Below, in pieces: positions 14 to 31,165 of a stretch of DNA of 32,358 nt. Position numbers and translations under genes: made by a program. Location of the stretch: positions 1-32,358 of the forward strand of contig JACSRQ010000036.1 in assembly GCA_014879675.1 (NCBI GenBank). The letters run 5' to 3'. The DNA is from Ignavibacteria bacterium. Lineage in GTDB: Bacteria > Bacteroidota > Ignavibacteria > Tepidaquicellales > OLB5. Every line of letters starts with the position of its first letter. The first letter of the stretch is position 1. The notes beneath the pieces are model-generated. The model was not told the DNA's origin. It worked only from the letters and a program-made list of their open reading frames with translations, and did not search any database.

Positions 14-2164
14 ATGAAAACCTTAATTTGTTTCTTGCTGATCTTTATGACTTACTCTGAATTGTATTCGCAAAATTCAGATTGGACTTATCGTAACACA
101 AACCCTCAAAATGATTTTTATGGAATAAAATTTTTCAATCAGAATACCGGTTATGTTATTGGTTCAGGCGGGGTATTACTGAAAAACGTTTCAGGTTCAA
201 ATAACTGGATCAATATACCAACGTACACTACCAGGGATCTTTATGCTTTGTATTTTTTTGATGTAAACTCCGGATACATTGTTGGAGATAGAGGTACTAT
301 ATTATACACCTCTAACGGAGGAACGAACTGGACTTCAATTGTTGCTAATAATAGTTATGCGCTTAGAAGCATAACATTTGTTAATCAAAATACAGGCTTT
401 GCTGCCGGCGATCGCGGCGAGTTATATAAAACTACGAACGGTATCACAGGATGGCTGCAAATAAATGTTACTTCAACGAATCTGAAGCATGTGTACTTTT
501 ACGACCAGTTAACCGGATTTGTATGCGGCGACAGCGGCAAAATACTCAGAACTACGAATTGCGGGATAGACTGGAGTTCGCAGACCATTGGAAATGAAAA
601 CCTGTATAGTGTAGGATTTATCAATTTACTTACAGGCTATATTACAACACGCAACGGTGGAATGAAAACAACAAACAGCGGGAATAACTGGAGTTCATTT
701 ATGTTTGGATACGGCGGACAGGAAAATCGCGTAAAATTCGCAGATGCTAATACCGGATATATGTATGGGATGAACGGGCCCATTTCCAGGACTACAAACG
801 GCGGCACAAACTGGTCTGCTTGGTGTTCTGCCCAGCTATTCTCCGGAAATACCTTTACCGACTTAAGTATTGTAGATTCAAACAATGTCTTTGCCTGCGG
901 TGCCGGAGGATGGATCCTAAAATGTTTTGGCCAACAAATGAACCAGACCGCCACACATCTTGGCGGATCCAAATCACCACTATCCCGGATAAGTTTTACA
1001 AGTTTATCAACCGGCGCAATGATTGGGCAGAGCTCGCTCTTGTTCACCACAAGTAACGGCGGAGATAATTGGAATATTTCGCTTTGCGGAAACAATAGCT
1101 GGTTTGAAGGCTCAAGCTATTTAACGGGGCTGTGGCTCTTTTCGCCAACAAGCTGGTATAGGAAAATATACTCCCCCGGACTTGGAGGATTTTCTTATAC
1201 TTCAATTCATCAGTCAACTGATGGAGGAGTTACCTGGGCGGGGAACAGATCATATGGTACGTATTCTTTGGGTGATGCAGGTATGAATGTTTCTGAAGCT
1301 GGCGGCACTACTTATGTTACTTCATACTCTAATATTCTAAAAAATTCAGGTTCCGGCTGGAGCACTATATACACCGGTTCACCTACTGGCAGTATTTGTT
1401 TCGCAGATGCAAACACCGGATTAGCAGCAATACATCCAACTGGATTTAGAGAAGTACTATTTACTTCAAACGGTGGAGCAAACTGGACAACACACTCAAC
1501 AGGATCTACTAAATATATAGAATCTGTATATCTAAGAACATCAGGACTTGGATTTATTGGCTGTGATTCCGCGTTACTGCTCAGAACAACCAACTTTGGA
1601 CAGAATTTTTCTCAGGTACCGGTACCAAACAATCTGCATGTTCAGAATATCAGGTTTGTTAATGATGTTACAGGTTGGTTCCTGGGAGTTGACCATACAT
1701 ATCCTGGTATGGGCAGACTCTTTGTAAGCAATAATGGCGGTACTTCGTTTCAGCAAATGTTATCGCTGATGAATTTTGATGTGAAGGGTTTTTCATTTGT
1801 TGATCCACTAAATGGTTATGTTTGCGGTGATTCCGGCAAAGTTTTGAAAACAACAAATGGAGGATTGACATTTGTCAGCCACGATCCGGTAATCACACCG
1901 CAAGAGTTTTCACTTTCCCAAAACTATCCCAATCCATTTAATCCAGGTACGAATTTCGGATTTCGGATTGCTGATTTCGGATTGGTGAAGCTTACAATTT
2001 ATGATGCTCTTGGCAAAGAAGTAGCGATCATCGTAAACGAAGAAATGCAACCCGGCATCTATAGTGTTAATTGGGACGCATCCAACTATCCCAGCGGTGT
2101 ATATTTTTATAAGCTTCAAAGCGGCGAGTTTGTAGAATCTAAAAAAATGATCTTAATAAAATGA
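14..2164 (+). CDS. Secreted YCF48/Asp-box-like beta-propeller protein with T9SS sorting domain (paralog 1)
   Basis: 716-residue exported protein. Residues 1-20 form a signal peptide ending in YSQ. The body is a chain of about 14 degenerate repeats of roughly 40-50 residues, pattern F-x-[DN]-x-x-[TS]-G-[YF]-x-x-G...K/R-T-T-N-G-G-x-N-W, typical of YCF48/BNR (Asp-box) beta-propellers; 14 repeats would suit two seven-bladed propellers. From about residue 632 comes a T9SS type A sorting domain (QNYPNPFNP, then [16 protein letters not shown], and KKMILIK at the end). The function is unknown; such proteins are surface-exposed or secreted after T9SS export. It is first of five co-directional paralogs and its stop overlaps the next start by 4 bp (ATGA), so they are probably co-transcribed. 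Repeat 7 is degenerate and repeats 9-10 keep little more than their Asp-box-like ends. The promoter lies outside the window. Confidence 0.9.
1952..1984 (+). repeat. TTTCGGA direct-repeat insert inside the T9SS domain of paralog 1
   Basis: Three copies of (A)TTTCGGA separated by TTGCTG, encoding FGFRIADFG, sit between the NYPNPFNP motif and the YDALGKE strand. The same stretch recurs with one base difference at 8932-8964 in paralog 5. The other paralogs have unrelated sequence at this loop. It could be a small intergenic-type repeat captured in frame, or simply a shared loop sequence kept by gene conversion. Confidence 0.55.
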
Positions 2165-4284
2165 AAAAAATTGTGGTCTTATCTTATCTTCTAAGTTTCT
2201 TTTTAGTCACTCATGATCTGACGATATCGCAAACTATAACCCAATATGGATGGCAGTGGCTAAACCCGAAACCTACAGGAAATACTCTTTATAAAGTAAA
2301 ATTTATTGACTCTAATACGGGTTATGCGATTGGCAGAAACAGCACAGTAATAAAAACTACAAATGGCGGCTTAAACTGGCTTTTTTTGCAAACGTACGAT
2401 TCCAGCGGCAACTGGATATATAAAACTATGCATGTTTTTAACAAAGATACTCTCATTATTGCAGGTTACTGGGGAAAAATATATAAAACTGTAAATGGCG
2501 GTGCTAACTGGCAATACATAAATTCCGGGGTGTTAAGTTCACTAAATGATGTATTTTTTCTGAATTCAACAACTGGATACATGACGGGAGAAAGTTACCT
2601 TATTAAATCCACAAATTCTGGTAATTCATGGTTTGTTGTGAATACCGGATATTCCTTCCTTAAGAGCTGCGTGTTTTTTACAGACGAGAACAACGGATTC
2701 GTGATTGGAAGTAAGTTCATGAAAACCACCAATGCAGGTTTGAGCTGGGATACTGCTTCCGGTCCAGGTTTGTCACAGTCAAATGATTTACATTTTTTTA
2801 ACGCGCAAACAGGTTATATAGCCGGTTCTAATCTTCAGTTGACCACTAATGGAGGCCAAAATTGGAGCGAAATACAGGTCAATTCATCGGTGATTAACAA
2901 TCTTCACTTTTTAAATTCTACCAGTGGTTGGCTTGCTGGTCTAAACGGGGTTTTTAAAACGGAAAATGGTGGTTTAAACTGGACTAGTCTTAATTTAAAC
3001 ATGGATGTAACAGATATCAGTTTTGTAAATGGATCTACGGGATATTACTGTAGCTATGCCAGTATTTTCGGCAAAACGACTAATGGCGGTATCAACTGGA
3101 TAAACCAGGGATATAAAATAAACACAGCTGACAATTGCGTGTATTTCTTAAATGAAAACACCGGATATATGGCAGGAGGTACTTTTTATAAAACTATTAA
3201 TGGCGGTTTAAACTGGAATGTGATTTCGTATACAGATGCAAACAGGATTAAATTTTTTAATGAAAATACCGGTTATGTTGCGACAGGCAGCTATTCAGGG
3301 CAGGGAAGTGTAAAAAAAACGACTAATGGCGGAGTTAACTGGATAAATGTTCAAACGACCTATGGAGTATATGATATTCATTTTATAGATGTTAATACAG
3401 GATATGGGGTTGGCGCTTCAAGATCAATTATCAAAACCACTAATGCAGGGCAGACATGGCAATCATTACATTCAGGTTTAGGCTGGTTGCACTCAGTTTT
3501 TTTTGTAGATGTTAGTACAGGCTTCGCAACTGGTTCTTACTCTAGTTGGCCTATTCAGCATTCTTTGGTTCTTAAAACAATTGATGGAGGCGCATCCTGG
3601 TCGGTTCAGGAAACAAGTTGGGGAACGGGTAATTCAGTTTTCTTCGTAAATCATAATACAGGATATATAGCAGCAGGTTATTCCGAAACGCAGGGCTATC
3701 TTTTTAAAACTACAGATTCAGGAAATAACTGGGTATCTCAGGAAATAGGATTTCCGTATAGTCTTTACCAGGTCCAGTTCATAAATGAAAACACAGGTTT
3801 TGCAAGCGGGTCCAAAGGGAAATTCATCAAAACTACTAACGGAGGTCTAAACTGGTTGCAGAGCTATTGCGTAACTGAATCTACTTTGTGGAGTATGCAT
3901 TTTGTAAATCAGAGTACTGGATATTTAAGCGGGTCGGGGGGTGTGCTTCTCAAGACAACTAATGGAGGAGGTCCGCTAGTCGGAGTATCTGAGTATACTA
4001 GTTCCTCAATTCCGAAGGACTTTTATTTGCATCAAAACTATCCCAATCCGTTCAATCCTGTAACTAATATCAAGTTTGATATAAGCGGTTCTTCAGTAGC
4101 ACAGACATTCCTCGCTGTGTATGATATTTTAGGAAGAGAAATTGCAGTTCTGGTGAACCAGGAAATACGCCCCGGAAGCTATTCCGTCAATTGGGACGCA
4201 TCAAACTTCCCAAGCGGTGTATATTTTTATAAGCTTCAAAGCGGCGATTTTGTTGAATCTAAAAAAATGGTGCTAGTTAAATAA
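2161..4284 (+). CDS. Secreted YCF48-like beta-propeller protein with T9SS sorting domain (paralog 2)
   Basis: 707 residues. A hydrophobic signal peptide (about 1-23, ending in ISQ) leads into about 14 clear repeats of the form F-[ILV]-[DN]-x-N-T-G-Y-x-x-G...K-T-T-N-G-G-x-N-W, the most regular of the five paralogs and consistent with two seven-bladed propellers. The T9SS type A domain starts near residue 622 ([15 protein letters not shown]) and ends in KKMVLVK. The start is fixed by the ATGA overlap with paralog 1; 12 bp separate it from paralog 3. The last 80 or so bases are nearly identical to paralogs 3 and 5 although the propellers have diverged. The catalytic or binding role is unknown; YCF48/Hcf136 homology reflects the fold and does not imply photosynthesis. 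Confidence 0.9.
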
Positions 4285-4296
4285 ATTCTTATACTA

Positions 4297-6495
4297 ATGA
4301 AAAAAATAATTCTAGTTGTGTTTTTATTATGCTATTACACAGCTATAAAAGCTCAGTCATCTGGCTGGTTTTTCGTAAATCCTCAACCAACAAATATGAC
4401 ATTGAATAGTGTCAGATTCTTAAGTCAGAATGCTGTCTTAGCAATTGGATATAACGGCACATTATTAAAATCCACAGATGGGGGATTCAACTGGAGCAAT
4501 CCATTGTCAACTTCGGCAGTAACCGGTTTAGAAAAACTGCAATATTTTGATATGGTATTCTTTGACCAAAATACAGGGTTTATATTGGGAGATAATACCG
4601 GCGGCGTTTCAAAACTTTTTAAAAGTACAAATTCAGGGTCTAAATGGACTTTAGTTTATGATTTTACCGGTATAGCCCGTGCGATGGATTTTGTTGATCA
4701 AAATACCGGATGGGTAGGAAACGGAGTCCAAATTCAAAGAACAACAAACGGAGGACTTAGCTGGCAAAACGCGTCCGGCACATTTCCTTCCGGTATACTG
4801 AGTGTCACATTTCTTGACCAAATGACAGGGTTTGCGACAGCATCAGATAAAATTTTCAGATCAACAGATGCCGGCCTAACCTGGCTTCTTCTCAATTCAC
4901 AGGCAGGCGGTAACGTTAATGATCTTCACTTTGTAAATTCTCAAACGGGATTTGCAGTCGGCGGAGCCTCAAATAGTGTAATACAGAAAACAACAAATGC
5001 AGGTTCTACCTGGACAACAAAGTTATTAAGTAATCTTACGGGTCAATTAAGCTCTGTTTGTTTTTCAATTGGCCAAACAGGATTTGCAGCGGGGGGAGGG
5101 TTTGATAGTCCACCGGGAGCAATATTCAGAACAACCAATGAAGGGGAAAACTGGAGCCAAATACCTATTACAACGGCCTTTCATTTGAATTCTATTAGCT
5201 CTATCGGGAATAATTGTGTGGTTGTAGGTTACGGGGGAAAAATTGGCCTATCTACAGATCATGGATTGACTTGGTCAATTCCCGAATCCTATTTGCAGCA
5301 AAAGCTTACTTTCAATCCCTTAAGTTTTATTGACGAAAATACCGGCTGGCTTTCAATATCAGGTTATACAGGGCAAGTACCCATATACAAGTCTACAAAC
5401 GGAGGACTTAACTGGGAAAGCATCTATATGACATCGCCAACTCCCAACTGGATGCAGTTCTTAAACTCCAGCACCGGGTACTATAAAAGCGGGAATACAT
5501 TGTATAAGTCTACAAACAGCGGATACAATTGGGCACAAACTACTTCGCTTAACATTACAGTTAGTTCAATTATTTTCTCAGACGCAAATTCCGGCTATGC
5601 CTGCGGATATACATCCACGCCGTACCGGCCCAGGCTTATTAAAACAGTAAATGGCGGATCTACATGGGATACTATTCATGTTATAGCTGAGATATCGGCA
5701 GTTACATCTTTTAGTTTCCTCAATTCAAATACCGGATGGGTAAGTGCAGCTTACGCAGTTTATCCCATGGGTACTAATAGTAAAATTTACAAAACTACAG
5801 ATGGTGGTGCAAACTGGTTTTTTCAGAGAATTGATACGAATGCCTCACACAAAAAGATCAGTTTTATAAATGAACTAACAGGATGGGCTGCAGTTACCGC
5901 TTTTAACACATCATCAAGCAGTTTGATAAAAACGACTGATGGAGGCAATAGCTGGTTTAATCTTCCCTTGAGTATTTTATGGGGAATGTTTCAGTTTATT
6001 GACCCTAATACCGGATGGGCGCAAGATGTAACGGGTTCAGTGTTCAAAACAACAAACGGGGGACTGAATTGGTATGCTCAGGTTGATATTGGTTTAGCAG
6101 GCTTTGAAAACATGCAGTTCATTAATTCAAATACAGGATGGATTGTTGGTAGCGGGGGGCTAATTGCAAAGACAACAAATGGTGGAGAATTGGTTAGTGT
6201 TAATAATGTATCAATTGAGATACCCCAAAAATTCTCAATATCTCAAAATTACCCAAATCCGTTCAATCCGGTTACAAATATAAAATTCGATATAAGCGGT
6301 TCTTCAGTTGCACAGACATTCCTCGCTGTGTATGATATCCTCGGGCGTGAAATTGCCATACTTGTAAACGCAAATCTCAAACCCGGCAGCTACAATGTTG
6401 ATTGGGACGCCTCAAACTTCCCAAGCGGGGTATATTTTTACAAGCTTCAAAGCGGCGATTTTGTTGAATCTAAAAAAATGGTGCTAATAAAATAA
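4297..6495 (+). CDS. Secreted YCF48-like beta-propeller protein with T9SS sorting domain (paralog 3)
   Basis: 732 residues. Signal peptide about 1-19 (ending in KAQ), about 14 YCF48/Asp-box repeats (examples: [20 protein letters not shown] and [18 protein letters not shown]), then a T9SS type A domain from about residue 648 to the KKMVLIK end. The domain shares the loop [20 protein letters not shown] with paralog 2 and only with it, so the two sorting domains are sisters or have been homogenised. It lies 12 bp after paralog 2 and 25 bp before the chosen start of paralog 4, which fits one transcript. The role is unknown; a surface-exposed binding protein is the most economical guess. Confidence 0.9.
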
Positions 6496-6520
6496 CTTCT
6501 TGCATAAAAAGGGGGTCGCA

Positions 6521-7849
6521 ATGAAAAATACGATTTTCATAATCATCTTCTTCGCAACGCAGAACTTTTTAGCCCAGACTTCCTGGATCGAACAGAATTC
6601 AGGCGTTACTGTACCTCTCAATTCTGTTTTCACCTCTAATTGGTCTCAAGCGGCGTGGATATGCGGAAACAATGGCACAGTTTTAAGAACTACTGATTCC
6701 GGTACAAACTGGATAAATGTAAGCGGAAATGGAATTCCATCGAACGTTGTTCTTAACACGATCTCGGATTGTGCTAACTATCCTGAGTATGCAATTACAG
6801 CCGGCGTAAGATCGGATACTGCAATTGCTTATCTAACCACAAACAGCGGGGCTTCATGGCAGGTGGTTTTGAGACAGTATGGCGGTTATATTAATGGTGT
6901 GGGACTTTCTTATTCAAGGGGCTTTATTATCGGCAATCCGGTTGGCGGCAGATGGACGATTTATAAAACTACAAATAACGGATTGAATTGGGATTCGACT
7001 GGAATGTACCTTCCTCAGAACAACTCCGAAACCGGATTCAATAATTCCTTTTTTATCAATTTCTATGATGTTGTTTTCGGAACAAATAACAACAGGATAT
7101 ACTCCTCTTCGAACAGCGGGGCAAACTGGGTATTTAAAACTACTGCAGGTTCAATGAATTCTTCGGTGCTTTCATCTGTTATGTTCGGAACCGCTACCCC
7201 TTTTTCCGGGTACATAGGCGGCAGTCAAAAAATTCTCTATACAACCAACGGCGGCAATAATTGGATCCAGGATAGCACATTGCCCGGGAATGGCAATATA
7301 GTCGGTATCTTCCCGCAGCCGCTTCCGGTCGATCTGGGATATTACAATTTAATAGTAACGCGTGGTGATAACAAAATATACATGCAGTATGCCTATAGTT
7401 CCGGGTGGACACTCCAATATACTTCACCGGCAGGAAATTACAGGCATATATCAAACAGACTGCCATATGGTGTTTGGGCAGTAAGGGATAATGGCGGGAT
7501 ATCATATTGCGGCTGCATGCTCGGAAGTGTATCGCAAAATGAAGGATATATTCCTGAAACATATTCACTCTCCCAAAACTATCCAAACCCATTCAACCCC
7601 GTAACGAATATAAAATTCCAAATTCCCCTCTCGAGAGGGGTGTCCGCCGAAGGTGGACGGGGTGTGTCTGTTAGACTCACGGTGTATGACTTACTTGGCA
7701 GGGAAGTACAAACTCTCATAAACCAGCAAATGCAGCCGGGCAGCTACAATGTTGATTGGGACGCATCAAACTATCCAAGCGGAGTTTATTTCTATAAACT
7801 GGAATCGATTGACTTTAAAGAAACCAAAAGGATGGTCTTAGCAAAATGA
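6521..7849 (+). CDS. Secreted single-propeller YCF48-like protein with T9SS domain carrying a palindromic insert (paralog 4)
   Basis: 442 residues from the ATG at 6521, chosen over an in-frame TTG at 6500 because it gives a normal signal peptide (MKNTIFIIIFFATQNFLAQ) and has a purine-rich GGGGG at 6511-6515. About seven repeats follow, several degenerate, consistent with one seven-bladed propeller. The T9SS type A domain begins near residue 350 ([16 protein letters not shown]) and ends in KRMVLAK. Between the first strands, residues 368-384 (IPLSRGVSAEGGRGVSV) are encoded by a palindromic element found again four times at 30.5-31.0 kb. This makes the domain about 10 residues longer than those of its paralogs without breaking the frame. 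The stop overlaps the next ATG by 4 bp. Confidence 0.9.
   Translation: MKNTIFIIIFFATQNFLAQTSWIEQNSGVTVPLNSVFTSNWSQAAWICGNNGTVLRTTDSGTNWINVSGNGIPSNVVLNTISDCANYPEYAITAGVRSDTAIAYLTTNSGASWQVVLRQYGGYINGVGLSYSRGFIIGNPVGGRWTIYKTTNNGLNWDSTGMYLPQNNSETGFNNSFFINFYDVVFGTNNNRIYSSSNSGANWVFKTTAGSMNSSVLSSVMFGTATPFSGYIGGSQKILYTTNGGNNWIQDSTLPGNGNIVGIFPQPLPVDLGYYNLIVTRGDNKIYMQYAYSSGWTLQYTSPAGNYRHISNRLPYGVWAVRDNGGISYCGCMLGSVSQNEGYIPETYSLSQNYPNPFNPVTNIKFQIPLSRGVSAEGGRGVSVRLTVYDLLGREVQTLINQQMQPGSYNVDWDASNYPSGVYFYKLESIDFKETKRMVLAK
7621..7674 (-). repeat. In-frame copy of the two-hairpin palindromic element
   Basis: Read on the minus strand this is ACACACCCC, then an inner hairpin (GTCC-arm and GGAC-arm with a 3-nt loop, 7 bp including one wobble), then ACCCC and a perfect 16-bp palindrome CCCCTCTCGAGAGGGG followed by AATT. 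The same outer modules flank different inner hairpins at 30542-30590, 30629-30683 and 30918-30966; 30850-30878 is a shortened copy. Here it lies wholly inside the coding sequence of the fourth propeller gene and is translated without stop or frameshift. Confidence 0.85.
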
Positions 7850-9144
7850 AAAAAATATGCTTTATTTTGCTTCTATGTATCATTGTTTTTCTAAATGAAA
7901 ATTTGATCTCGCAAGGTGGATGGGTAATTCAAACCACACCTGTTACTGATGACATATACGCCATTCAATTTGTTAATCTTTACACAGGTTATGCAGCAGG
8001 TGAAAACGGCAGAATTGTTAAGTCCACAAACGGTGGTATAACTTGGTTTTCAATTGGGTCCGGTTTAACAAGCCAGTTTTTATCGGTCATTAGATTTTTT
8101 GATGCAAATACAGGCTATGTTTCCGGCAACTGGAGTGGCAGTGTCACAAATAATTTCTTTAAAACTACAAATGGTGGCTTAAACTGGACTTTGATCGGTT
8201 CATTATCACCTGACCGAATGCAGTTTATTGATCTTAATCTAGGCTGGGGAATTGTAAACCAGAGTTTAGGAAAAACAACTAGTGGCGGAGTTCAATGGTC
8301 ATTTAGTACATTTGACCCTGTATGTCCTAATTGCAGCATGAATGATATCTATTTCCATAATGAAAATACCGGCTATACATCAGGTGACTATTGGAATTCC
8401 GCGCAAAATATGGGTTATATGTTTTTGTTTAAAACAACCAATGCCGGTGGTAACTGGAATCAGAAATTTGTTTATCAATCCAATGTGAATCCATACGCTC
8501 CGCAGCTTGGGCATATGTTTTTTCCTGATAACCAAATGCAGATTGGCTATGCACTTGGTTCGTTTGAAATTTATGCAGGTCTCTACAAAACAACCAATGG
8601 CGGAGAAAACTGGAGTCTTAAAAAGCAATTTCCCATTCAGGCAAATTACCAGTGGTTTACAAGTGCTGATACCGGTTGGGTTACCAGTACTCAAGGAAGA
8701 GTAATGTTTACTTCAGACGGAGGCAGTAATTTCTTTACTTATACCAATGGTATTAACTCTGAACTGAATAGAATTTTCTTTTTAAATGACTCAGTTGGAT
8801 GGATTGCCTGCAATGATGGAATAATTCTTGCAAGAAATGCCGGGATAAATGGTATCCATCCGGTTAGTTTCAATTACCCGTCCGAATTCATTCTCTTCCA
8901 AAATTATCCTAACCCGTTCAATCCCGTAACGAATTTCGGATTTCGGATTGCTGATTTCGGAATGGTGAAGCTAACAATATATGATGCTCTTGGCAAAGAA
9001 ATCGCAAGTGTTGTAAATGAAGAATTACAGCCCGGCAGCTACAATGTTGATTGGGACGCATCAAACTATCCAAGCGGTGTATATTTTTATAAGCTTCAAA
9101 GCGGCGATTTTGTTGAATCTAAAAAAATGGTTTTGATAAAATAA
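7846..9144 (+). CDS. Secreted single-propeller YCF48-like protein with T9SS sorting domain (paralog 5)
   Basis: 432 residues. Signal peptide about 1-23 (ending in ISQ), then seven recognisable repeats, from TGYAAGENGRIVKSTNGG to VGWIACNDGIILARNAG, as expected for one seven-bladed propeller. The T9SS type A domain starts near residue 349 ([16 protein letters not shown]) and ends in KKMVLIK. Its loop FGFRIADFG is the one found in paralog 1, 7 kb away, not that of its immediate neighbours. The start is set by a 4-bp ATGA overlap with paralog 4. It ends the propeller array; the next gene follows after 31 bp. Function unknown. Confidence 0.9.
   Translation: MKKICFILLLCIIVFLNENLISQGGWVIQTTPVTDDIYAIQFVNLYTGYAAGENGRIVKSTNGGITWFSIGSGLTSQFLSVIRFFDANTGYVSGNWSGSVTNNFFKTTNGGLNWTLIGSLSPDRMQFIDLNLGWGIVNQSLGKTTSGGVQWSFSTFDPVCPNCSMNDIYFHNENTGYTSGDYWNSAQNMGYMFLFKTTNAGGNWNQKFVYQSNVNPYAPQLGHMFFPDNQMQIGYALGSFEIYAGLYKTTNGGENWSLKKQFPIQANYQWFTSADTGWVTSTQGRVMFTSDGGSNFFTYTNGINSELNRIFFLNDSVGWIACNDGIILARNAGINGIHPVSFNYPSEFILFQNYPNPFNPVTNFGFRIADFGMVKLTIYDALGKEIASVVNEELQPGSYNVDWDASNYPSGVYFYKLQSGDFVESKKMVLIK
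8932..8964 (+). repeat. TTTCGGA direct-repeat insert inside the T9SS domain of paralog 5
   Basis: Same sequence as 1952-1984 with one substitution, at the same place in the sorting domain (between the PNPFNP motif and YDALGKE). It consists of three (A)TTTCGGA units around TTGCTG. Confidence 0.55.
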
Positions 9145-30420: not shown

Positions 30421-30503
30421 GTAGAGTAGGTGAGTAGGTGAGTGGGTGAGTAGGCTAGTAGTGGAGTAGGTAAGTAGGATGAGTAGACTAGTGGGTGAGT
30501 AGA
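30421..30503 (+). repeat. Degenerate GAGTAGGT tandem tract (left arm)
   Basis: About ten imperfect 8-10 bp units (GAGTAGGT, GAGTGGGT, GAGTAGGC, TAGTAGTG, GAGTAGAC). The reverse-complement version of the same low-complexity sequence lies at 31088-31165, so the two tracts are inverted with respect to each other. Confidence 0.75.
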
Positions 30504-30541
30504 GAACCCCTCTTTCCCAAACTCCAGTTCTGAAAAGCAAT

Positions 30542-30590
30542 ACTGAACACACCCCGGCGCTAAAGCGCCACCCCTCTCCAGAGGGGAATT
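30542..30590 (+). repeat. Two-hairpin palindromic element, copy 1
   Basis: ACTGAACACACCCC, inner hairpin GGCGCTAAAGCGCC, then ACCCCTCTCCAGAGGGGAATT (outer palindrome with one C in place of T; 21-bp run given in two parts: ACCCCTCTCC and AGAGGGGAATT). The inner hairpin is the same as in copy 4. Confidence 0.8.
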
Positions 30591-30628
30591 AAAGACTACT
30601 CACCAACTAACCTACTCAATCTTTTTCT

Positions 30629-30683
30629 ACTGAACACACCCCGTCCCGATGTTCATCGGGGCACCCCTCTCTAGAGGGGAATT
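30629..30683 (+). repeat. Two-hairpin palindromic element, copy 2
   Basis: Same outer modules as copy 1, but the inner hairpin is CCCGATGTTCATCGGG. It lies in the left half of the direct duplication (30582-30711). Confidence 0.8.
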
Positions 30684-30744
30684 ATGTGTACAATCTCAAA
30701 ATCCTCTTTCCAAAGCTCCGGATTTTTATCAAAACTCTAGCAGG

Positions 30745-30765
30745 AGACGACCCACCGGGTCGTCT
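30745..30765. repeat. AGACGACCC palindrome
   Basis: AGACGACCC and GGGTCGTCT, 9-bp perfect arms around ACC, followed by CTACAGG. It occurs once in the window, between two direct-repeat blocks. Confidence 0.65.
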
Positions 30766-30809
30766 CTACAGGATAATTTTCAAAAATCGAAAAGATCTTG
30801 TTTACCCCT

Positions 30810-30835
30810 CTTTCCCAAACTCCAGTTTGGGAAAG
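30810..30835. repeat. TTTCCCAAACT palindrome, best copy
   Basis: Arms CTTTCCCAAACT and AGTTTGGGAAAG pair over 12 bp around CC. Related copies are at 30989-31014 (one extra base), 30512-30536 (right arm decayed) and 30706-30730 (strongly decayed). Confidence 0.75.
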
Positions 30836-30849
30836 GAATAATGTTTTCT

Positions 30850-30878
30850 ACTGAACACACCCCTCTCAAAAGGGGAAT
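30850..30878 (+). repeat. Two-hairpin element, copy 3 (inner hairpin missing)
   Basis: ACTGAACACACCCC runs directly into CTCTCAAAAGGGGAAT: the inner hairpin and one CCCC block are absent. This shows that the inner hairpin is a separable module. Confidence 0.7.
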
Positions 30879-30917
30879 CAAAAACTACTCGCCAACTAAC
30901 CTACTCAATCTTTTTCT

Positions 30918-30966
30918 ACTGAACACACCCCGGCGCTAAAGCGCCACCCCTCTCTAGAGGGGAATT
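30918..30966 (+). repeat. Two-hairpin palindromic element, copy 4
   Basis: ACTGAACACACCCC, inner hairpin GGCGCTAAAGCGCC, outer palindrome CCCCTCTCTAGAGGGG, then AATT. It lies in the right half of the direct duplication (30871-30994), where copy 2 of the left half carries a different inner hairpin. Confidence 0.8.
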
Positions 30967-30988
30967 ATGTGTACAATCTCAAAATCCT

Positions 30989-31014
30989 CTTTCCCAAACT
31001 CCAGTTTGGGAAAT
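30989..31014. repeat. TTTCCCAAACT palindrome, second copy
   Basis: CTTTCCCAAACT and AGTTTGGGAAA with CC in the middle; directly follows the right copy of the large direct duplication. Confidence 0.65.
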
Positions 31015-31087: not shown

Positions 31088-31165
31088 AACTACTTACCTA
31101 CTCACCAACTCAACTACTCATCCTGCTCAACTACTTCACCTACTCTTCCTGCTCAACTACTTCAC
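31088..31165 (-). repeat. Degenerate tandem tract (right arm) including the stop codon of the adhesin-like gene
   Basis: On the minus strand it reads GTGAAGTAGTTGAGCAGGA, AGAGTAGGTGAAGTAGTTGA, GCAGGATGAGTAG and so on: units of GAGTAGGT and GTGAAGTAGTTGAGCAGGA. The first unit supplies the last codons and the TAG stop (31157-31159) of the gene. The tract then runs toward the terminator. Confidence 0.7.

What the first reader, a model, noticed from the sequence alone, without database searches (positions are those of the whole stretch)
7621..7674. Palindromic repeat element translated in frame inside a T9SS sorting domain
The minus strand of 7621-7674 matches the two-hairpin element found four times at 30542-30966: ACACACCCC, a variable inner hairpin, then ACCCCTCTC-AGAGGGGAATT. 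In gene 6521-7849 it encodes IPLSRGVSAEGGRGVSV between strands of the sorting domain, with no stop and no frameshift, while the rest of the domain matches its paralogs. Known precedent: Rickettsia palindromic elements inserted in frame into many genes. I know of no description of such elements in T9SS cargo. It implies a mobile or spreading small repeat that can generate protein sequence, in a domain handled by the secretion machinery.
Basis: partly seen in the sequence, partly recalled or inferred. Interest (0 to 1): 0.82.

Follow-up and report, generated by a model that had tools for sequence, protein, structure and literature searches.

The report
Mobile DNA hairpins translated inside secretion tags
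Small hairpin repeats scattered through the genomes of a group of uncultured bacteria have repeatedly ended up, in frame, in one turn of the protein tag that sends proteins through the type IX secretion system, so that spreading DNA becomes surface-protein sequence at one fixed place.

Summary
The window carries element A (ACACACCCC-hairpin-ACCCCTCTC..GAGAGGGGAATT) in frame in a T9SS sorting domain. Its genome has 27 strict copies. Of 138 copies read, 53 lie in sorting domains, 52 at one turn (Lβ2β3), strand and frame. In 22 protein-selected copies silent sites are nearly fixed while neighbouring codons vary; the inner hairpin covaries inside coding DNA, with exceptions.

The same turn holds other palindromes. 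Element B has a GT[AG]G foot and flanks a RAYT gene. A copy of element C lies in frame inside a RAYT gene, as published for subclass 2.4. More distant genomes show further families. Among 40 genes sharing one passenger, the turn's content changes at least 15 times on the tree; a closely related pair differs by a tract of roughly 80-90 bp.

Best reading: REP-like elements enter a tolerant turn and are copied between sorting domains by short gene conversion. Transposition of A is not shown and no RAYT was tied to it. In-frame REPs are known; this single-turn colonisation was not found in my paper searches.

The parts
7621..7667 (-). Element A, 17-nt inner hairpin, translated from the + strand as IPLSRGVSAEGGRGV in the turn I map as Lβ2β3
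6521..7849 (+). T9SS cargo gene (Por_Secre_tail; weaker matches to Sortilin-Vps10 and PSII_BNR below their cut-offs) carrying the insert
7553..7846 (+). Sorting domain with the insert; AlphaFold2 keeps the strands, the insert is a low-confidence loop
4099..4119 (+). Element B (2 mismatches) translated as part of SVAQTFLAV at the same turn of gene 2161-4284
6310..6330 (+). Element B (2 mismatches) at the same turn of gene 4297-6495
1952..1981 (+). ATTTCGG heptamer-like repeat ([10 protein letters not shown]) at the same turn of gene 14-2164; dispersal not tested
8932..8961 (+). Same heptamer-like repeat at the same turn of gene 7846-9144; dispersal not tested
30547..30590 (+). Intergenic element A, 14-nt inner hairpin
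30634..30683 (+). Intergenic element A, 20-nt inner hairpin
30855..30879 (+). Short intergenic copy without inner hairpin
30923..30966 (+). Intergenic element A, 14-nt inner hairpin
30744..30766 (.). Intergenic element C (GAGACGACCCACCGGGTCGTCTC), the palindrome read as ETTHRVVS in other sorting domains

Best explanation
Short palindromic REP-like elements, at least two of them linked to RAYT (REP-associated tyrosine transposase) genes, enter coding DNA now and then. The turn between β-strands 2 and 3 of the T9SS sorting domain tolerates them, probably because it is a variable loop outside the conserved Lβ3β4 and C-terminal motifs. With at least 150 sorting domains in this genome, an accepted in-frame element is then copied to other domains by short gene-conversion tracts (turn plus flanking strands), so one turn collects many families, each in one frame as far as read. 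The hairpins stay mostly paired while translated, because copies are young, because conversion or quasi-palindrome repair corrects them, or because the hairpin is constrained. Shown: dispersed copies (A, B, C, L142 family), same site and frame, several families, tree-discordant content, a swapped tract, silent-site conservation of A, covariation. Inferred: RAYT-driven entry, tolerance, conversion as the main spreading step.
For: A: 27 strict copies in the genome, control 0; 53 of 138 read copies in sorting domains, 52 at one turn and frame. In the own genome A 7 of 27, B at least 10 of 50 and C at least 5 of 18 copies are in sorting domains; taking all 322 first-look candidates as domains (1.9% of the genome) binomial P is 6e-7, 4e-8 and 2e-5, though copies related by duplication are not independent. 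In 253 domains from four searches not aimed at repeats, inverted repeats with arms of 8 or more are 2.98 per kb in the Lβ2β3 region against 0.26, 0.34 and 0 in the other parts. RAYT links: B, C. Passenger tree: 15 changes of content; starred sister pairs differ. One native/C pair: printed flank blocks 88-98% alike, turn blocks 40 and 22 of 60. Models: native turn at residues 34-36; insert disordered, later strands kept.
Against: No RAYT is tied to A: of 38 Y1_Tnp loci scanned (of 63 matches), 2 have A within about 1.5 kb. In-domain A is not a random sample of the intergenic pool: inner hairpins are 11 or 17 nt (one of 18 in the other turn), against 12-30 nt and never 11 outside, which points to few founders. 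Codons beside A are no more alike between carriers than distant ones (0.47-0.49 against 0.49), so no conversion tract shows around A in general. B's silent sites are less fixed (0.62 against 0.41-0.51 around it, 7 copies). In the 17-nt type 27 of 133 hairpin pairs are not Watson-Crick, mostly at pairs 2 and 3. G010 has no A in a sorting domain, and 0 of 10 copies read of 44 in G022 are in one. The published translocon buries nearly 40% of a bound C-terminal domain's surface (PMC10994853, passages); I did not work out whether this turn is in that surface.
Confidence: 0.62

Rival explanations
1. Site-preferring insertion: each element is inserted directly and repeatedly at this turn, the transposase or repair machinery recognising the conserved local sequence (for example ATTCC before the turn) or its microhomology with the element ends.
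For: Nine B copies start exactly 60 nt inside the TIGR04183 match, on its strand. A carriers share the element but not neighbouring codons. Element ends overlap native codons (ATTCC....GT). L068 shows A in the opposite orientation at another turn.
Against: In-domain A has only 11- or 17-nt inner hairpins at this turn although intergenic copies of 14 or 20 nt would also keep the frame. A native/C sister pair differs over a tract wider than the element.
Confidence: 0.2
2. Selected function of the palindrome itself (mRNA hairpin, recombination signal or diversification device): hairpins are maintained in coding DNA because they do something for the cell.
For: Silent sites nearly fixed in 22 protein-selected A copies. 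Covariation: 17-nt type 106 of 133 Watson-Crick pairs against a maximum of 103 in 10,000 shuffles; 11-nt type 27 of 28, 11 of 10,000 shuffles as high.
Against: Many unrelated palindromes and also tandem repeats occupy the turn, and relatives do without any. The 17-nt stems are often broken at pairs 2 and 3. Youth or repair templating also explains the pairing.
Confidence: 0.1
3. Ancestral peptide: the loop peptide is an old protein feature and the intergenic copies are derived from it.
For: The peptide is shared by many paralogues in the genus.
Against: Copies outside domains have both element ends and 70 distinct inner hairpins of mostly other lengths; homologues have native turns or other repeats; silent sites of the peptide are nearly fixed.
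Confidence: 0.03
4. Assembly artefact or chance.
For: The window is a contig of a fragmented assembly of 255 contigs.
Against: A at this turn in 11 of 13 genus genomes, one of them in 2 contigs (G008); reversed-pattern control 0.
Confidence: 0.02

Closest known systems
REP elements (GTAG and CGTC super-families) and their intragenic copies (Di Nocera et al. 2013, PMC3733652; abstract, passages and sections 6 and 15 read)
   Same: Short dispersed palindromes, some in frame inside genes. B has GT[AG]G in 12 of 12 copies read, C a one-sided GTAG in 9 of 10, and the L131, L142, G and L409 palindromes mostly have GTAG. One published case: different REPs at about the same site of recB.
   Different: There the insertions lie in varied genes, many for DNA repair; here one turn of one secretion domain collects many families.
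TnpA_REP/RAYT subclass 2.4 with REPs inserted in frame in the transposase gene (PMC6006769; passages read)
   Different: The passages concern tnpA genes, not secreted cargo; subclass was not assigned by a tree here.
Rickettsia palindromic elements (RPE), in frame in many genes (recalled, and as cited in PMC3733652)
   Same: Palindromic repeat translated in frame.
   Different: As I recall, RPEs hit many unrelated genes; a recurrent single site with a succession of families is not known to me.
T9SS C-terminal domain loop variation (PMC11285876; passages read)
   Same: Lβ2β3 varies, with a 13-residue hairpin-like connector in mirolase; Lβ3β4 and the C-terminus are the motifs found relevant.
   Different: No repeat origin of the loop is mentioned in the passages read.

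Membership tests
REP element (GTAG super-family): element B | Dispersed palindrome with unpaired GT[AG]G foot | tested here: met
   50 matches in the own genome with up to 3 mismatches; GTAG in 10 and GTGG in 2 of 12 copies read.
REP element (GTAG super-family): element B | Association with a RAYT gene (REPtron) | tested here: met
   Two copies before and three inverted copies after the gene at C181. The frame matches NF047646 REP_Tyr_transpos at E 1.9e-22, 79.7 bits against a cut-off of 80, and Y1_Tnp over its cut-off.
REP element: element C | GTAG foot | tested here: met
   GTAG (with the first base of the stem) on one side in 9 of 10 copies read; not a double foot.
TnpA_REP subclass 2.4 system: element C | REP inserted in frame inside tnpA between HuH and Y motifs | tested here: met
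   L284: MPNHFHAII..ETTHRVVS..WQ..EYIIYNP; NF047646 E 6e-17 but 61.9 bits, under its cut-off of 80. The published Y motif is YIxNNP, here YIIYNP, one residue off; no tree of RAYT classes was made.
REP element: element A | GTAG foot or RAYT neighbour | tested here: not met
   No GTAG at the ends; 2 of 38 Y1_Tnp loci have A within about 1.5 kb. A is therefore called REP-like.
CGTC REP: element A | CGTC end, 8-9 bp stem, 4-5 nt loop, CCA tail | tested here: not met
   49 of 85 non-domain inner hairpins begin GTC after CCCC, a partial likeness, but 75 of 85 stems are 3-7 bp and the main loops are TTC or TAAA.
Rickettsia palindromic element | Sequence membership in RPE families | not tested
   No RPE sequence was compared; only the analogy of in-frame translation is used.
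T9SS sorting domain | TIGR04183/PF18962 match and Ig-like seven-strand fold | tested here: met
   Pfam E 2e-9 for the inserted window protein. A native-turn window paralogue models as a β-sandwich; Foldseek ranks mirolase CTD 6th (E 0.01), PorZ 10th, RemA-CTD 14th, FspA-CTD 42nd among other Ig-like folds. The inserted model was not searched.
Mobile element: element A | Demonstrated transposition | not testable with these tools
   Only distribution and tree evidence.

The most novel reading that the evidence does not exclude
The β2-β3 turn of the T9SS sorting domain is a general capture and exchange site for small mobile palindromes: RAYT-type REPs feed it, gene conversion shuffles the cassettes among the many cargo tags, and hairpin-templated repair keeps the palindromes intact while they are translated, giving a diversity-generating system for secreted proteins.
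Probability: 0.17. Interest if true: 0.92.

Novelty: new variant of a known kind. Interest (0 to 1): 0.76.

Why it matters
In-frame palindromes are usually seen as scattered, tolerated accidents. Here more than a hundred homologous acceptor sites in one genome make the process countable: entry, exchange and decay of translated repeats can be followed site by site, with native-turn sister genes as controls. It bears on how new protein sequence arises from selfish DNA and on how far the secretion machinery tolerates change in its own signal. It also warns annotators that peptides such as PLSRGV, VETTRRVV or SVAQTFL in these tags are translated DNA repeats rather than conserved motifs.

Tried and rejected
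Rfam scan of window 30500-31010: six weak matches, none near its gathering score. RAYT as mobiliser of A: not supported. The first silent-site test was partly circular, because the copies had been picked by a DNA pattern; it was backed by a codon-free pattern (181 matches, 21 with the reversed control, 150 listed, of which 125 fit CCCCTCTnnAGAGGGGT, non-domain copies included; counted) and by 22 in-domain copies found at the protein level. β-hairpin register as the reason for 11 and 17 nt: dropped as a rule, since other families give loops of odd and even length. I first took C for a double-foot REP; one search shows a one-sided foot. Palindrome of L131: only 3 copies in its genome, so dispersal there is weak. 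Dispersal of E, G, the L097, L116, L155 and L409 palindromes and the heptamer repeat was not tested. Searches for T9SS together with palindromic, REP or related terms; two searches found no paper, four, and one search listed 8 of 105, none of whose titles and shown abstract openings deal with this. That covers open-access papers only.

Full report
What was checked. I take it for an Ignavibacteria genome because most of the named relatives of the window protein are titled so, and because two contig lengths of its genus-mate G002 equal those of records titled Ignavibacteria bacterium UBA2360. The minus strand of 7621-7667 is a full copy of the intergenic element at 30547, 30634 and 30923, each with its own inner hairpin. 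The gene is open and the insert is residues 368-384, inside PF18962.

Element A. A strict two-part pattern has 27 matches in the own genome and matches in 13 of 13 genus members (own included). Of 46 other genomes only G022 has it, with 44 matches; the reversed control has 0. I read 138 distinct copies (136 in the genus, 2 in G022). Of these 53 lie in sorting domains: 52 at one turn, on one strand and in one frame, in 11 of 13 genus genomes, and one (L068, G006) in the opposite orientation at the turn before the last strand; G010 has none. Three further G012 copies and eight of G022 were read later; none is in a sorting domain. Inner hairpins in domains are 11 nt (24), 17 nt (28) or 18 nt (L068). 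Outside they run from 12 to 30 nt, none of 11 and six of 17, three of which (L060, L070, L181) sit in frame in what looks like one other gene family.

Not only A. Among 180 domains the loop between NPFNP and the YD..G motif is 18 residues in 134, and several longer loops carry perfect inverted repeats. In 114 domains from the contig search, loops over 18 residues have arms of 7 or more in 8 of 23 (0.63 expected after codon shuffling), 18-residue loops in 2 of 91 (1.73 expected); the 8 include two A copies and one gene pair with the same loop. In 253 domains from four searches not aimed at repeats, arms of 8 or more occur 34 times in the Lβ2β3 region (2.98 per kb) against 7 (0.26), 5 (0.34) and 0 in the other parts. 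Of the 34, three lie in loops of native length and one is an A+T-rich stretch before the loop; of the other 12, about five look like repeats too (L131, L155 twice, L250, L277). Limits: the set holds related paralogues, the query carried the insert (its peptide patterns did not), and the query came from an A-bearing gene, without the domain.

Families. B (GCACAGACATTCCTGTCTGTG) has 50 matches in the own genome with up to 3 mismatches. Nine fall in TIGR04183 spans listed, each exactly 60 nt from the start of the match and on its strand, and one more in a domain cut by a contig end (L262); one search scored 150 of 322 candidates, so 10 is a lower bound. C (GAGACGACCCNNCGGGTCGTCTC) has 34 strand-wise hits, which I count as 18 places; at least five are in domains (C66 twice, C99 by coordinates, C106, C11). 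The L142 palindrome has 25 places in its genome, and 3 of the 8 loci read are sorting-domain turns. The L131 palindrome has 3 places, 2 in such turns. Seen once or a few times, with dispersal untested: E (TCTCCCCCTGTCAGGGGGAGA), G (GGAATGGTCGTGACCATTCC), the L409 palindrome, and those of L097, L116 and L155. Record titles of the more distant loci name Ignavibacteriae, Ignavibacteriaceae, Bacteroidetes, Chlorobiota and Stygiobacter.

Link to RAYTs. The own genome has eight Y1_Tnp matches. At L044 the gene lies between two B copies and three inverted ones; its product matches NF047646, REP-associated tyrosine transposase, at E 1.9e-22 with 79.7 bits against a cut-off of 80. B has GT[AG]G before the stem in 12 of 12 further copies read. 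In G009 a C copy lies in frame in a frame with MPNHFHAII, WQ and EYIIYNP (L284), NF047646 E 6e-17 but 61.9 bits, below cut-off. PMC6006769 describes in-frame REPs between HuH and Y motifs for subclass 2.4; its Y motif YIxNNP differs from this one in one residue. A 2-mismatch L131-family copy lies in a similar frame (L421, 42.3 bits, below cut-off). Pfam scores L284 and L421 under its Y1_Tnp cut-off. For A, 38 of the 63 Y1_Tnp matches were scanned and 2 have A within about 1.5 kb.

History of gene families. The three nearest homologues of the window passenger (53-56% identity) hold A (G012), B (another gene of the own genome) and a different 22-residue loop (G009) at the same turn. The passenger of L063 has matches in all 13 genus genomes. 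From the stretches fetched I kept 40 of 53 frames, from 10 genomes: native turn 15, A 11, C 8, E 3, G 1, other 2. On the passenger tree the content needs 15 changes (least possible 5, shuffled mean 21.4), native/insert alone 7. Starred sister pairs differ: A against C, and native against C twice. In one native/C pair the printed flanking blocks are 88-98% identical while a tract of roughly 80-90 bp, from just after NPFNP to the GKEI codons, is not (40 and 22 of 60); in a second such pair the flanks are more diverged and the tract has similar limits. That is what a short conversion tract would leave.

DNA-level upkeep. In 22 in-domain A copies found at the protein level, CTC and GTG are unchanged in 22, CCC in 21 of 21 prolines, AGA in 21 of 21 arginines and GGG in 19 of 21 glycines, while NYPNPFNP codons just upstream vary. 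The inner hairpins covary in coding DNA. In the 11-nt type (7 distinct) one pair occurs as T-A, A-T, C-G and G-C, one side of it a silent glycine position; 27 of 28 pairs are Watson-Crick, 11 of 10,000 shuffles as high. In the 17-nt type (19 distinct) 106 of 133 are, against a shuffled maximum of 103, but pairs 2 and 3 are often broken. Copies are related, so the shuffles overstate independence. Against a simple conversion story for A, codons beside A are no more alike between carriers than distant ones; and B's silent sites are only somewhat more alike (0.62) than those around it.

Structure. A native-turn window paralogue models at pLDDT 90 with a tight turn at residues 34-36 between strands 27-33 and 37-45. 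The inserted domain models at 80.8 with residues 30-34 below 50 and the later strands in place. Foldseek puts the native model near solved T9SS C-terminal domains at weak E-values, among other Ig-like folds. By the nomenclature of PMC11285876 (passages) I place the insert in Lβ2β3 and L068 in Lβ6β7; this mapping is mine. None of the 53 in-domain A copies lies in the Lβ3β4 motif.

Conclusion. How A moves, and whether the palindromes do anything for the cell, is open.

Noticed in passing
window 14-9144: Five consecutive T9SS cargo genes, none with a clearly native turn: heptamer repeat, B, B, A, heptamer repeat.
   Followed up: partly
L042 about 1204-2215: Y1_Tnp gene surrounded by seven CGATGGGC..GCCCATCG hairpins: another REPtron-like array, with such hairpins also at L315, L320, L328, L330 and L331.
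   Followed up: no
window 30810-30835 and 30990-31013; L045 about 565-591: Palindrome TTTCCCAAACT..AGTTTGGGAAA in the window resembles the hairpin next to a Y1_Tnp gene in L045.
   Followed up: no
L060, L070, L181: Element A in frame (PLSRGVTAEGSRGV) in what looks like another long protein family of the genus.
   Followed up: partly
L426 (G022:C2, near 477331): Element A with 15-nt inner hairpin in a 340-residue open frame of another genus; function of the frame not searched.
   Followed up: no
L192, L226, L250, L277 (C-terminal part of the sorting domain): The turn before the last strand also takes repeats: SPSTGSGRG peptides and the palindrome AGACGTCCCAGCGGGACGTCT.
   Followed up: partly
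window 30855-30879 against 30923-30966: Short copy lacks the inner hairpin, which in full copies lies between ACCCC direct repeats: nested insertion or slippage deletion.
   Followed up: no
window about 30430-30500 and 31100-31150: Degenerate GAGTAGGT / ACCTACTC tandem repeats flank the repeat cluster.
   Followed up: no
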